The notes under the pieces were generated by a model. That model did not search any database. It was not told where the DNA came from and saw only the letters and a program-made list of their open reading frames with translations. From positions 62,001 through 126,000 of the forward strand of contig MDLF01000063.1 in the NCBI GenBank assembly GCA_001730095.1: a stretch of DNA of 64,000 bases, written 5' to 3'. This DNA is from Rhodobacteraceae bacterium (ex Bugula neritina AB1). GTDB lineage: Bacteria; Pseudomonadota; Alphaproteobacteria; Rhodobacterales; Rhodobacteraceae. The stretch's first letter is position 1, and the number at the start of each line of letters is the position of its first letter. This document shows, piece by piece, positions 55,137-58,019 of this stretch. Both the position numbers and the translations under genes were made by a program.

Positions 55137-55472
55137 GTGGCTGGGAAATTTGAACTCTATGAGGATAAAGCGGGTGAATTCCGCTTCCGCCTAAAAGCGG
55201 GCAATGGCGAGAATATCCTTGCCAGCGAAGGCTACAAGCAGAAGGCCAGCGCAGAAAACGGCATCGCGTCTGTCAAGAAAAACGCAGAGGATGACGGCCG
55301 GTATGAGCGCAAGGAAACCTCGGCCGGCAAGCATATGTTCAACCTGAAAGCCGCCAATGGCCAAGTCATCGGCACCTCGCAGAGCTATGCCAGCGCTTCG
55401 GGCCGCGACAATGGCATTGAATCCGTCAAGAAGAACGCGCCCGACGCTGCAGTGGACGATCAAACGTCTTGA
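55137..55472 (+). CDS. YegP-family protein (DUF1508, two repeats)
   Basis: A 111-residue protein of two YegP repeats: KFELYEDKAGEFRFRLKAGNGENILASEGYKQKASAENGIASVKKNA and YERKETSAGKHMFNLKAANGQVIGTSQSYASASGRDNGIESVKKNA. The family is widespread and uncharacterised. The start is GTG 55137, with AGGAG eight bases upstream; the earlier GTG at 55128 has no room for a ribosome site. It faces the large coiled-coil gene tail to tail across a 81-base hairpin region. Confidence 0.88.
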   Translation: MAGKFELYEDKAGEFRFRLKAGNGENILASEGYKQKASAENGIASVKKNAEDDGRYERKETSAGKHMFNLKAANGQVIGTSQSYASASGRDNGIESVKKNAPDAAVDDQTS

Positions 55473-55484
55473 ACCGCGTTCACA

Positions 55485-55520
55485 AGGCAAGGCCGGTTCA
55501 GGCGGCCTTGCCTGAACCGG
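55485..55520. repeat. Interlocked hairpins between yegP and the coiled-coil gene
   Basis: Two perfect 11-bp stems share sequence and cannot form together. AGGCAAGGCCG (55485-55495) pairs with CGGCCTTGCCT (55503-55513). CCGGTTCAGGC (55493-55503) pairs with GCCTGAACCGG (55510-55520). The element lies between convergent genes and has no T run. It could switch transcript ends or be a palindromic element. Confidence 0.6.
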
Positions 55521-55553
55521 CGCTTGTATCTGTCGGCAAATGTGCGGCTACGA

Positions 55554-57629
55554 TCAGGGGATCTTGTTGTTCTTCCGCACTGTCAAATCCGCGCCTTTCT
55601 TGAATGTCACATCACCGACACTCTGGTTGCGCTCGGTTTCCCAGCCCATATCGCTGTCTTTGAGCCTGTCGTCCGGGAAATGGGTTTTGAGCTTCCAATC
55701 GCCGCTGGTTGAAGACCGGGTCAGCACCACCCGGTAGTGCGTTACCATCTTGACGCCGTCGCCGCCCGCCTTCTCGACCATCTTTACATTCAGGGCTTTG
55801 AACGTCTGATCCAGGGTCTTCGTGCCATTCTCGAACTCGCTAAGCGCCTTTTTGATGTCGACAAGATCCACCGCGTCCCCGTCGCGCTTGAATGCATAGC
55901 CCCACCCCGGCGCCGAGGCCGGTTTGCCCAGTTTTAGTGTCAGGTCTTTGAATTCCTGATCCACATTGCTGGCATCGGATTCATTGCCAACCGTCCAATG
56001 CGTGAAATCCTTGAATTTGGCCGCGATCTGCATTGCCCTGTCAAAGGCCTCTTTTTCAAGCACCGGGGTCGCCCACATAGACGTGTTGCCGCCGCTGAAT
56101 TGCTTTCGGCTGAACACGTTCTTCACCTTTTCCAGCGTTTCATTCTTGCTGTCGATGACCCGCTTTCCGTCTTCTTCGGTATAGGTGATTTGGACCTTGT
56201 TCCATTCCTCGGTGACTTTGGCCGTGCCGGCCACATTGCCTGGCTGGTCTGGTGTCACACCTTTCTTGGAGGAGGCCCGCATTGCCTGCCGTTCCATGCC
56301 AGTCTGCGCCCCATGGCGGCCGGTGCCATGACCTTCGCCGCCCTCTTCCTTCTGCAGCCGTTCTTCCTGCCACTGCTGTGCCTCAGCCTGCTTGCCTATC
56401 AGTTCCGCGATCTGGCTGCGGGCCTGATCCACCGGCACACTGTCCAGCATTTCGTCCAATGCGGTAATGCGGGATTTGATATTGCCCAGTGCGGTGACAA
56501 ATGCCTTTTCCTTTTCCAGCTTTTCAGCCTTCATCTCCTCAACATTCCTCAGCAACTGCTCCCGCGACTGATCCAGAACCTGCTTGGCCTTCTCCAGCCG
56601 GTCGGCGCTGGCATCGACCTGCTGCTTCTTCTTGTCTATGTCTTTGGCTTTGGTCAGCCCTGACAATGTGTCTTGCAAGCCCTTCAGCACCTCGGCTTCG
56701 CGGGTCACCGCCGCCTCCAGTTTGCCCAGCCGCGCAGTCTCTTCCTTGATCCGGCTGGCCAGCACTTTTGCCGCGTTGCCTGAGTCTGATTTTGCAAACT
56801 CCTGACTGCGCTTTTCCGCGTCCTGCTCGTCCGACGCCAATGCCGCCTTCACATACCCGATCATTTCCTTGTCGAGCACTTCCATCCGGGCATAGGCCTG
56901 CGTCCATTCACCTTTCTCGAAATGTTCTGCCACGGCGCCGAAATGCTGGCGCAATGCCTTGCGCTCATCATCCATGATCTTGCCCTTGACCTTATCGAAC
57001 CGGGCGGTCGTGGCCTTCAGCCGGGTCTTGGCATTGGTTTCCTCCTTAGAGGCATCCTTGCCGCCGCCGATCAGCTTGATCAGTTCCTCCATCCGGGTGT
57101 TGAGGGCGATCAGGGTCTTTGCTGCCGCTGCCTGATCGGTGTCTTTCTGCTCTTCAATCCGCCCAAACAGGGTGCGCAGTTCCTTACGCTCATCATCAGT
57201 GATCCGGCCTTTGATCTTGTCAAACCGGCCTTCGACGGCCTGAAGCCGTTTCAAAAAGCGCTTGTCCGGATCTTTCTCGCCGCCAGCGTCAAGGTCTATG
57301 GCCACTAGATCGTAATCGAACTGGGTGCCTTTCATCAGCGGCTTCAGCTTCTTTTCGGGCATCCTGCCCTTCACCAGGCTGAGCTTCAGAGTACCATCCT
57401 TGACAGAACACTGGCCCACTGCCTGCTGCTTGGCCTTGGTCTTCAGCTCCTTCAGCAAAGGCGCCGTCACTTCGCCGACGATCAGGATGGACTGGGCTGC
57501 GCCGTTCAGCGTGACTTCGTCGTAGAAGTAAAAATCGCTCGGGGTGTCATCCAGCTTTTTGAGCTCTTTCTTCAGCTCGGCCTTGTAGCTCTGCTCACTG
57601 TTGAAAACATCGATCTTCTTAAATGGCAT
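55554..57629 (-). CDS. Large coiled-coil protein with internal repeats and unknown C-terminal domain
   Basis: A 691-residue soluble protein with no signal peptide. Residues 1-110 form an alpha/beta region (DFYFYDEVTLNGAAQSILIVGE). Residues 135-158 and 210-233 are near-copies (RFDKIKGRITDDERKELR versus RFDKVKGKIMDDERKALR). Residues 283-430 form long helices and a coiled coil (KEETARLGKLEAAV). A Gly/His/Gln linker follows at 430-460, then a C-terminal domain (470-691) with NVFSRKQFSGGNTSMWATPV and VTHYRVVLTRSSTSGDWKLKTHFPDD. The end recalls nuclease-type polymorphic toxin tips, but this is only suggestive and no immunity gene follows. GGGAGG precedes the ATG. Confidence 0.6.
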   Translation of the reverse strand: MPFKKIDVFNSEQSYKAELKKELKKLDDTPSDFYFYDEVTLNGAAQSILIVGEVTAPLLKELKTKAKQQAVGQCSVKDGTLKLSLVKGRMPEKKLKPLMKGTQFDYDLVAIDLDAGGEKDPDKRFLKRLQAVEGRFDKIKGRITDDERKELRTLFGRIEEQKDTDQAAAAKTLIALNTRMEELIKLIGGGKDASKEETNAKTRLKATTARFDKVKGKIMDDERKALRQHFGAVAEHFEKGEWTQAYARMEVLDKEMIGYVKAALASDEQDAEKRSQEFAKSDSGNAAKVLASRIKEETARLGKLEAAVTREAEVLKGLQDTLSGLTKAKDIDKKKQQVDASADRLEKAKQVLDQSREQLLRNVEEMKAEKLEKEKAFVTALGNIKSRITALDEMLDSVPVDQARSQIAELIGKQAEAQQWQEERLQKEEGGEGHGTGRHGAQTGMERQAMRASSKKGVTPDQPGNVAGTAKVTEEWNKVQITYTEEDGKRVIDSKNETLEKVKNVFSRKQFSGGNTSMWATPVLEKEAFDRAMQIAAKFKDFTHWTVGNESDASNVDQEFKDLTLKLGKPASAPGWGYAFKRDGDAVDLVDIKKALSEFENGTKTLDQTFKALNVKMVEKAGGDGVKMVTHYRVVLTRSSTSGDWKLKTHFPDDRLKDSDMGWETERNQSVGDVTFKKGADLTVRKNNKIP

Positions 57630-57967
57630 TCTGGCTCCCTCCCCGTTCTGAGGCATACGAAATTGACTGCCTGTCTTTTCACGAGGTAAATTTCTGAAAT
57701 CTAACGGTAGCCGCAGATGCGCGGCCAATCAAAACAAAAGACCGGCGGCAATACGCCAGGCCAGCAGAATTCCCTTGAAACATTGATGCAACAGGCCTAA
57801 AAGCCGCTCGTCTGGCGCCGGGAATCGGCTCCGGGCCGCTGGCTGTTGGATCATGCACCTGAAACCTTCTTCGGTTCACTCAAGGGATCCATCCTCCGGC
57901 AACAAGGAACAGACGGTGTGATCTCTGGCGGGCGCAGACGCGGACCCGGTGAAGACCAGGAGCTCTC
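57630..57967. other. Upstream region of rplS and the coiled-coil gene
   Basis: About 340 bases lie between the divergent coiled-coil gene and the rplS leader. I see promoter-like A/T stretches but no gene and no clear hairpin terminator. The rplS transcript probably starts here, because insertions upstream separate it from trmD. Confidence 0.4.
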
Positions 57968-58009
57968 ATGACGGCACAAACCTCTGTGGAAAAACCACAG
58001 GCAAATTAG
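57968..58009 (+). CDS. Short leader peptide before rplS (13 codons)
   Basis: An ATG with AGGAG seven bases upstream opens a 13-codon frame, [13 protein letters not shown], ending with TAG. The stop codon overlaps the rplS ribosome site (TTAGGAGAG), and the rplS ATG is 10 bases later. A hairpin (CTGTGG-aaaaa-CCACAG, 57984-58000) lies inside the frame. Ribosomes translating the leader would open the hairpin, so it may regulate L19 translation. It could also be fortuitous. Confidence 0.45.
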
Positions 58010-58019
58010 GAGAGTTGCG

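What the first reader, a model, noticed from the sequence alone, without database searches (positions are those of the whole stretch)
55137..57629. Possible new two-component unit: YegP protein facing a 691-residue coiled-coil protein
The coiled-coil protein has an internal duplication, a long helical middle, a Gly/His/Gln-rich linker and a C-terminal domain I cannot assign. The last part, with WKLKTHFPDD, recalls strands of nuclease-type toxin tips. It sits convergent to a two-repeat YegP protein inside a translation operon, where unrelated genes are unusual. Modular N-terminal carrier plus variable C terminus is the layout of polymorphic effectors, though no immunity gene is on the same strand.
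Basis: partly seen in the sequence, partly recalled or inferred. Interest (0 to 1): 0.7.

Follow-up and report, generated by a model that had tools for sequence, protein, structure and literature searches.

The report
Likely injected toxin with swapped tails
A marine bacterium carries a gene, unrelated to its YegP neighbour, whose front part resembles a shared tag found on many proteins in bacteria with a particular injection machine (type VI secretion) and whose tail has been exchanged between strains, so it is probably one of a family of injected toxins.

Summary
The gene is real (55554-57629, minus, 691 aa; intact in six genus genomes). It is not a unit with YegP: in 21 genus genomes the yegP-rplS slot holds this gene (6), a remnant (3), other ORFs (6) or about 350 bp (6), and homologues in two other genera lack YegP. 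A stronger reading replaces it. (1) The C-terminal domain (about residues 428-691) is an exchanged cassette: G017 and G012 share 91-100% of the DNA for residues 1-400 and 94-99% of yegP, but 61-79% inside it (dS 0.05-0.15 against 1.45). (2) The N-terminal domain matches, weakly in the window family (hhalign P 3e-5), strongly in the Qingshengfaniella homologue, a 115-residue domain without Pfam or NCBIfam name. It occurs on diverse proteins in 15 of 177 Rhodobacteraceae genomes; 14 have a T6SS with two or more TssB-like hits, nine with a copy about 1.4-1.8 kb from tssB. Several carriers end in toxin-like domains with a small downstream gene. (3) The C-terminus tentatively resembles RNase A-like CDI toxins; standard tests were negative. 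Best reading: a polymorphic T6SS cargo effector with a family-specific carrier domain. Secretion and toxicity are untested, no immunity gene is evident beside it, no structure could be predicted.

The parts
55554..57629 (-). 691-aa protein (CDS with stop), the subject of the finding
   Evidence: orthologues without internal stops in five other genus genomes
57273..57587 (-). N-terminal T6SS-linked carrier domain, residues 15-119
   Evidence: hhalign P 3.3e-5 over 99 columns against the domain collected from other proteins; 200 column shuffles reach at most 24.8 against 32.8. By hmmsearch alone only E 0.07 for this protein
57150..57248 (-). helical repeat 1 (core), residues 128-160
56925..57023 (-). 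helical repeat 2 (core), residues 203-235
56355..56912 (-). long helical (coiled-coil-like) middle, about residues 240-425
   Evidence: sequence by eye; no curated family reached its cut-off; no coiled-coil program was run
55557..56342 (-). C-terminal domain, about residues 430-691, putative nuclease toxin
   Evidence: conserved in three genera; block resemblance to PF18431, strongest in the two distant homologues
56298..56330 (-). HGTGRHGAQTG motif, residues 434-444; H439 placed opposite catalytic H175 of the Yersinia kristensenii CdiA toxin
55674..55697 (-). WKLKTHFP, residues 645-652; T649 and F651 (Y in the two other genera) placed opposite T276 and Y278
55470..56360 (.). exchanged cassette: C-terminal domain plus about 80 bp of 3' intergenic DNA (boundaries to within about 100 bp)
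   Evidence: 100-bp identity scan and dS by region
55473..58019 (.). variable slot between yegP and rplS
   Evidence: 21 genus genomes compared
55137..55472 (+). YegP (two DUF1508 repeats), constant neighbour, not part of the system

Best explanation
The gene encodes a polymorphic cargo effector of a type VI secretion system. Its N-terminal domain (residues 15-119) belongs to a domain family that marks many otherwise unrelated proteins in Rhodobacteraceae with the T6SS that has a second, TssCL-type sheath gene. By analogy with RIX it would load the protein onto the secretion machinery (inferred). The helical middle would be a spacer or loading segment (inferred). The C-terminal domain, exchanged as a cassette between strains (shown), would be the toxin, most likely a metal-independent ribonuclease of the RNase A-like/BECR kind acting after injection (tentative). 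No immunity gene is evident beside the gene in three lineages, so the target is either eukaryotic or the immunity gene lies elsewhere (open). The slot between yegP and rplS is only the landing place of this copy.
For: (a) Cassette swap: G017 and G012 differ by dS 0.13, 0.05 and 0.15 in residues 1-125, 126-290 and 291-425 but 1.45 in 426-691; G007/G011 show the same contrast (0.19-0.37 against 1.41); yegP on the far side stays at 94-99% in G017/G012. (b) N-domain: residues 1-150 of the Qingshengfaniella homologue find the 282-aa protein of two T6SS clusters at E 6e-7 and 9e-7 among 876 ORFs; a 27-copy profile without that homologue finds it at E 7e-28 among 884 ORFs (the copies had been recruited with a seed that included it). 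The window family, not used as seed, matches that profile by hhalign at P 3.3e-5; the other four segments of the protein score 7.7-13.5 against it, the reversed profile 11.0, and four random halves of the profile give P 9e-6 to 4.5e-4. (c) The domain is found at E <= 1e-8 in 15 of 177 family genomes, and at up to ten places in one genome (E <= 2.3e-4). 14 of those 15 are among the 45 of 198 with TssB, each with two or three TssB hits. In nine of them a copy lies about 1.4-1.8 kb from tssB. (d) Other carriers have different C-termini: an Endonuclea_NS_2 nuclease with a 130-aa ORF overlapping its stop codon, HExxH proteins, and others followed by an ORF of 135-148 aa. (e) All three genera with the gene have this T6SS (Fisher p 0.011 against TssB in 45 of 198). 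(f) PF18431-like blocks in the C terminus.
Against: Secretion and toxicity are untested. The N-domain match of the window family itself is weak (hmmsearch E 0.07-2 over seven proteins) and rests on profile comparison plus its strong match in one homologue. No immunity gene is evident. The gene is not in a T6SS cluster. T6SS is present in 20 of 21 genus genomes whether or not the gene is, so within the genus presence carries little information. Only three genera carry the gene. The RNase A-like reading failed the ordinary tests: no Pfam hit at cut-off, no PDB hit, hhalign P 0.025-0.22 local and 0.49 global. One N-domain genome, G047, has no TssB hit. Six genomes with two or more TssB hits (G042, G103, G598, G662, G667, G671) are not among the matches; whether they were in its sample is not shown. 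Many carriers share one helical C-terminus and need not be toxins.
Confidence: 0.62

Rival explanations
1. The N-terminal domain marks T6SS structural or accessory proteins rather than cargo, and this protein is an accessory factor with an enzymatic tail that stays in the cell.
For: Many carriers are helical proteins of about 420-640 aa with a shared type of C-terminus, several beside tssB, which looks like a machine part or adaptor rather than a toxin.
Against: Other carriers end in an Endonuclea_NS_2 nuclease or an HExxH domain with a small gene downstream. The window protein's C terminus is swapped between strains, which I would not expect of a machine part. RIX itself occurs on both effectors and secreted adaptors (PMC10435454, passages read).
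Confidence: 0.15
2. An intracellular defence or abortive-infection protein whose C-terminal nuclease is triggered by phage and diversified by phage pressure.
For: No secretion signal visible by eye (no signal-peptide program was run), no evident immunity gene, patchy and decaying distribution, variable neighbourhood slot.
Against: No PADLOC family beyond weak matches on the helical region (best E 0.0044). No relatives found in phages or viral contigs. The N-domain is linked to T6SS genomes instead.
Confidence: 0.1
3. YegP plus the coiled-coil protein form a two-component unit.
For: They are convergent neighbours in six genomes.
Against: YegP is present in all 15 genus genomes that lack the intact gene (in six of them only part of it lay in the fetched stretch), sits next to an MscS-like gene or other ORFs in six, is not co-exchanged, and is not seen beside the homologues in two other genera.
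Confidence: 0.02
4. The C-terminal domain is a toxin but of an unrelated, new catalytic fold, not RNase A-like (a variant of the best explanation, not exclusive of it).
For: Profile comparison with nine PF18431 members is not significant (P 0.025 local, 0.49 global); the domain is about twice as long as PF18431; F stands at the tyrosine position in Leisingera; the block score of the window protein itself (18.4) is exceeded by four of 317 other ORFs and by one of 1500 shuffles.
Against: The two divergent homologues score 29.3 and 28.6, above all 1500 shuffles each (max 21.2 and 19.5) and above all 317 other ORFs. The local hhalign matches fall in the expected register.
Confidence: 0.4

Closest known systems
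RIX-domain polymorphic T6SS effectors (Vibrionaceae; PMC10435454, abstract and passages read)
   Same: N-terminal domain shared by cargo with different C-terminal toxic domains; genes unlinked to the T6SS cluster; family-restricted; nearly all host genomes have a T6SS; some carriers are adaptors.
   Different: RIX is an arginine-rich stretch of about 55 residues in Vibrionaceae and Moritellaceae; here the domain is about 115 residues, by eye an alternation of strands and helices, in Rhodobacteraceae, and often has a copy beside tssB. Secretion is shown for RIX, not here.
CdiA-CT of Yersinia kristensenii, bacterial RNase A-like toxins (PF18431, PDB 5e3e; PMC9086364, passages read)
   Same: GH..RH motif, a serine/aromatic block followed by a helix-like stretch, a VVL..R strand-like stretch, and T.[FY]P at the end; H175 and T276/Y278 have counterparts H439 and T649/F651.
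   Different: Domain about twice as long with two inserts; arginine spacing +8 or +12 instead of +11; no significant profile match; no evident CdiI-like partner.
TssCL-bearing roseobacter T6SS (PMC9515649, passages read)
   Same: The window genome and both other carrier genera have tssB plus a long second ORF with TssB-like hits, as described for TssCL.
   Different: That paper searched Leisingera sp. ANG-M7 for effectors by similarity to known ones; the passages read do not mention this domain.
YegP / DUF1508
   Same: Neighbour in the window, two repeats.
   Different: Constant neighbour only; no functional link supported.

Membership tests
Polymorphic T6SS cargo effector with N-terminal marker domain | N-terminal domain shared with proteins that carry other C-termini | tested here: met
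   Strong for the Qingshengfaniella homologue (E 6e-7 single sequence, 7e-28 profile), profile-level only for the window family (P 3.3e-5); other C-termini
Polymorphic T6SS cargo effector with N-terminal marker domain | C-terminal domain exchanged independently of the N-terminus | tested here: met
Polymorphic T6SS cargo effector with N-terminal marker domain | Host genomes carry a T6SS | tested here: met
   all six genus carriers are among the 20 of 21 TssB-positive; G114 and G585 too; family base rate 45 of 198
Polymorphic T6SS cargo effector with N-terminal marker domain | T6SS-dependent secretion | not testable with these tools
   needs a secretion assay
Polymorphic T6SS cargo effector with N-terminal marker domain | Linked immunity gene (for antibacterial effectors) | tested here: not met
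   81 bp without an ORF between the gene and yegP in the window; no same-strand gene annotated next downstream in Qingshengfaniella; in G585 only a 128-aa open frame on the same strand, partly antisense to the next gene, that looks non-coding
RNase A-like toxin (PF18431) | Score above the curated cut-off | tested here: not met
   no PF18431 hit; own genome not found by the family search
RNase A-like toxin (PF18431) | Catalytic H, R, T, Y pattern | tested here: inconclusive
   H, T and aromatic in place, arginine spacing differs
RNase A-like toxin (PF18431) | RNase A-like fold | not testable with these tools
RIX effector | Arginine-rich N-terminal motif of about 55 residues, Vibrionaceae or Moritellaceae | not tested
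   no RIX profile was run; host family and domain length differ from the paper's description
YegP two-component unit | Conserved co-occurrence and adjacency | tested here: not met

The most novel reading that the evidence does not exclude
A previously unnamed N-terminal domain, specific to Rhodobacteraceae with the TssCL-type T6SS, is the loading signal of a large arsenal of polymorphic effectors (ten places in one genome), and the window gene is an unlinked member without immunity whose tail is a divergent RNase A-like toxin, perhaps aimed at eukaryotic neighbours of these bacteria.
Probability: 0.4. Interest if true: 0.8.

Novelty: new variant of a known kind. Interest (0 to 1): 0.64.

Why it matters
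The passages of PMC9515649 that I read say that no function is described for the T6SS of the squid-gland symbionts or of reference roseobacters, and its effector search worked by similarity to known effectors. A family-specific N-terminal marker domain gives a direct handle for listing their effectors from sequence, as RIX did for vibrios; PMC10435454 itself speculates that other families have such domains. If right, 15 genera in a sample of 177 already offer testable toxin and immunity candidates.

Tried and rejected
YegP unit: rejected. Known families for the whole protein: Pfam, NCBIfam, PHROGs and PADLOC gave nothing over a curated cut-off, only weak matches, mostly on the helical part. 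PDB by sequence with the C-terminal profile: nothing. Relatives in phages and viral contigs: none; plasmids: only Q. alkalisoli. A search of 398 phylum genomes with the C-terminal profile gave six genomes at E <= 0.1, of which only the own genome is real; the ORFs read at the five others carry nothing like the family. A motif pattern in viral contigs gave seven matches; none lies in a protein resembling the family. PF18431 by hhalign: not significant. An Rhs C-terminal toxin-like domain with a KHGP motif (L078) scores next to our distant homologues in the block test but gave no meaningful hhalign match. The 402-aa gene beside the TssCL-type ORF of G007 looked similar by eye but reaches only E 11; a search of 198 family genomes with it found nothing, the own genome included. 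In a first pass 28 ORFs of the G007 T6SS region did not match the window family (P 0.029 or worse); the overlap filter had dropped the 282-aa gene from that list, and it was found later.

Rows dropped: the PF18431 alignment uses 9 of the 16 loci tried (7 failed a motif filter; L029, L030 and L076-L080 were not tried). In one search, 6 of the 323 'other' ORFs proved to be PF18431 members, leaving 317. In one search, G074 and G627 (E 0.034 and 0.0029) were dropped because their sequences do not look like the domain; G113 (E 0.0435) is not in the 15 but reaches E 1e-11 with the richer profile. The N-domain profile uses the 28 domains at E < 1e-8 of the fetched loci (27 without the Qingshengfaniella one).

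Structure: structure prediction answered busy in each request and again, accepted one job, reported it failed, and said that it is switched off; not tried again. So no fold search was run.
Full report
What is there. The ORF at 55554-57629 (minus) is a real gene of 691 aa, single copy in its genome, between yegP (55137-55472, two DUF1508 repeats) and rplS. The window belongs to a Leisingera-group genome: contigs of three other genomes of its genus have the same lengths and matches as records named Leisingera. The internal duplication is confirmed. Pfam, NCBIfam, PHROGs and PADLOC name nothing in it convincingly.

Distribution. Full-length orthologues of 80-89% identity occur in five other genus genomes. 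Distant full-length homologues occur in Qingshengfaniella alkalisoli on a 449-kb plasmid (25% identity) and in G585 (47%). In a sample of 394 family genomes three carry it. None in phages. No YegP is seen beside either distant homologue.

The YegP link fails. At the yegP-rplS slot of all 21 genus genomes the intact gene is in six (G000, G005, G007, G011, G012, G017). A short N-terminal remnant is left in three (G013, G015, and weakly, E 0.008, G018). Another ORF occupies the slot in six: MscS-like in G002, G003, G014 and G016 (apparently broken in frame in G016), lipoprotein-like in G019 and G020, all named by eye. Six hold about 350 bp (G001, G004, G006, G008, G009, G010). YegP is found in all 15 genomes without the intact gene; in six of them only part of it lay inside the fetched stretch. 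For the six with the gene, the stretch ended inside the gene, and yegP is seen in the alignment.

The C-terminus is a swapped cassette. Pairwise dS by region puts G017 and G012 at 0.13, 0.05 and 0.15 for residues 1-125, 126-290 and 291-425, but 1.45 for 426-691. G011 and G012 have dS 0.26 there, and G017 and G007 0.24. Two C-terminal types exist: type 1 in G000, G007, G017; type 2 in G005, G011, G012. The 100-bp scan of G017 against G012 shows 91-100% in the twelve windows from 56427 to 57527, 84% in the window at 56327, 61-79% in the eight windows from 55527 to 56227 and at 55443, and 94-99% in the three windows inside yegP. The tract thus covers the C-terminal domain and the short 3' intergenic stretch, starting just before the HGTGRHGAQTG motif. 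dN/dS stays at 0.04-0.22 in this region, so both types are under constraint.

The N-terminus is a T6SS-linked domain. T6SS sheath gene tssB (PF05591) is in 20 of 21 genus genomes, in both distant carriers and in 45 of 198 family genomes; three of three carrier genera against that base rate gives p 0.011, a small sample. In the T6SS region of G000 and G007 a 282-aa protein proved homologous to the N-terminus of the Qingshengfaniella homologue (phmmer E 6e-7 and 9e-7 among 876 ORFs). A profile of these three (A7) finds the domain in 18 of 177 family genomes at E <= 0.1 and in 15 at E <= 1e-8, with ten places in G650, in open frames of 136-1931 aa, mostly near the N-terminus. Fourteen of the 15 are TssB-positive, each with two or three TssB hits, the extra ones usually in a long ORF that fits the TssCL fusion described in PMC9515649 (passages read); G047 is TssB-negative. 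Six genomes with two or more TssB hits (G042, G103, G598, G662, G667, G671) are not among the matches, and I cannot tell whether they were sampled there. In nine genomes a copy lies about 1.4-1.8 kb from tssB; in G109 14.8 kb. With 27 copies as profile, leaving out the Qingshengfaniella protein (which had been in the recruiting seed), that protein is found at E 7e-28 and the six window-type proteins rank next among 884 ORFs with E 0.07-0.43, G585 at E 2. Profile against profile, residues 15-119 align over 99 columns with P 3.3e-5, score 32.8, against at most 24.8 in 200 column shuffles, 11.0 for the reversed profile and 7.7-13.5 for the other four segments of the protein; four random halves gave P 9e-6 to 4.5e-4. 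The domain has no Pfam match at E <= 10 in the two proteins tried, and none of six carriers has an NCBIfam match above cut-off.

Other carriers look like toxins. Of ten further carriers read, one (L142) ends in Endonuclea_NS_2 (E 2.6e-13) with a 130-aa ORF overlapping its stop codon. Four (L136-L139, 1844-1927 aa) share a C-terminus with an HEVGH or HEVAH motif and a downstream gene of 231-235 aa, the one tested (L136) being CpXC-like (E 2e-18). Two (L141, L144) share another C-terminus and a downstream ORF of 145-148 aa. L143 has a 135-aa ORF starting three bases after its stop codon. L140 shows no convincing partner. L145 belongs to the common helical class of about 420-640 aa, which may be an adaptor or machine part, and has an 814-aa ORF downstream. 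So the domain is not proof of a toxin by itself, and the immunity role of the small genes is inferred from position.

The C-terminal activity is the weakest step. The conserved residues recall the RNase A-like CDI toxin of Yersinia kristensenii, whose active site is H175, R186, T276, Y278 (PMC9086364, passages read): H439, an arginine at +8 or +12 instead of +11, T649 and F651 (Y in the two other genera). Profile comparison is not significant (P 0.11, 0.22, 0.025; 0.49 in global mode; 0.2 and 0.053 for the two halves) though the local matches are in register. A four-block chain score taken from PF18431 gives 29.3 and 28.6 for the two divergent homologues, above 1500 shuffles each and above all 317 other ORFs, but 18.4 for the window protein, which one of 1500 shuffles and four of the 317 ORFs exceed. 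The test was set up after the resemblance was seen, so this is a lead. The fold could not be predicted.

Mechanism proposed. Shown: modular protein, exchanged C-terminal cassette, N-domain related to that of other proteins of T6SS-bearing genomes. Inferred: the N-domain loads the protein onto the TssCL-type T6SS, the C-terminus acts as a nuclease in the target. Open: the target and the missing immunity gene. RIX effectors, the closest analogy, are likewise unlinked, family-specific and polymorphic (PMC10435454, abstract and passages read).

Print status. Searches for T6SS effectors in this family, for TssCL and for marker domains returned no listing whose title or abstract start names such a domain in Rhodobacteraceae; only open-access papers are held, most were seen as listings only, and subscription papers were not searched.

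Noticed in passing
L086:8175-13244 (G007) and the matching ORFs in L089-L105: Giant T6SS ORFs of about 1060-1740 aa with a TssB-like start; in G007 a long Asp/Glu-rich repeat region and a C-terminal sheath-like part follow. This fits the TssCL fusion described in PMC9515649.
   Followed up: partly
L088:17814-18671 (G000) and counterparts in G005, G011, G585, G113, G671, G604, G667, G046: A voltage-gated-channel-like membrane protein is encoded directly beside the TssCL-type ORF in many of these T6SS clusters; named by eye, no family search run.
   Followed up: no
L086:14177-15382 (G007), L091 (G012), L094 (G017) versus L093:10733-11977 (G005), L095:7774-9018 (G002) and L088:16818-17768 (G000): The gene slot near the TssCL-type ORF holds different proteins in genomes of one genus: a 402-aa protein in three, a 415-aa one in two, a 317-aa one in the window genome, none seen in G011.
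   Followed up: partly
L078:2374-3273 (G871): An Rhs protein ends in a toxin-like domain without Pfam name (H...KHGP, SSSQF, GRGY, FTAFP) recalling both PF18431 and the window protein's C terminus; a possible intermediate.
   Followed up: partly
G650, among others loci L115, L128, L133: One genome has ten places with the N-terminal domain, suggesting a large effector set.
   Followed up: no
window 55473-58019 and L041-L061: The yegP-rplS intergenic slot is a turnover site in this genus (MscS-like gene, lipoprotein-like ORFs, the present gene, or nearly empty).
   Followed up: yes
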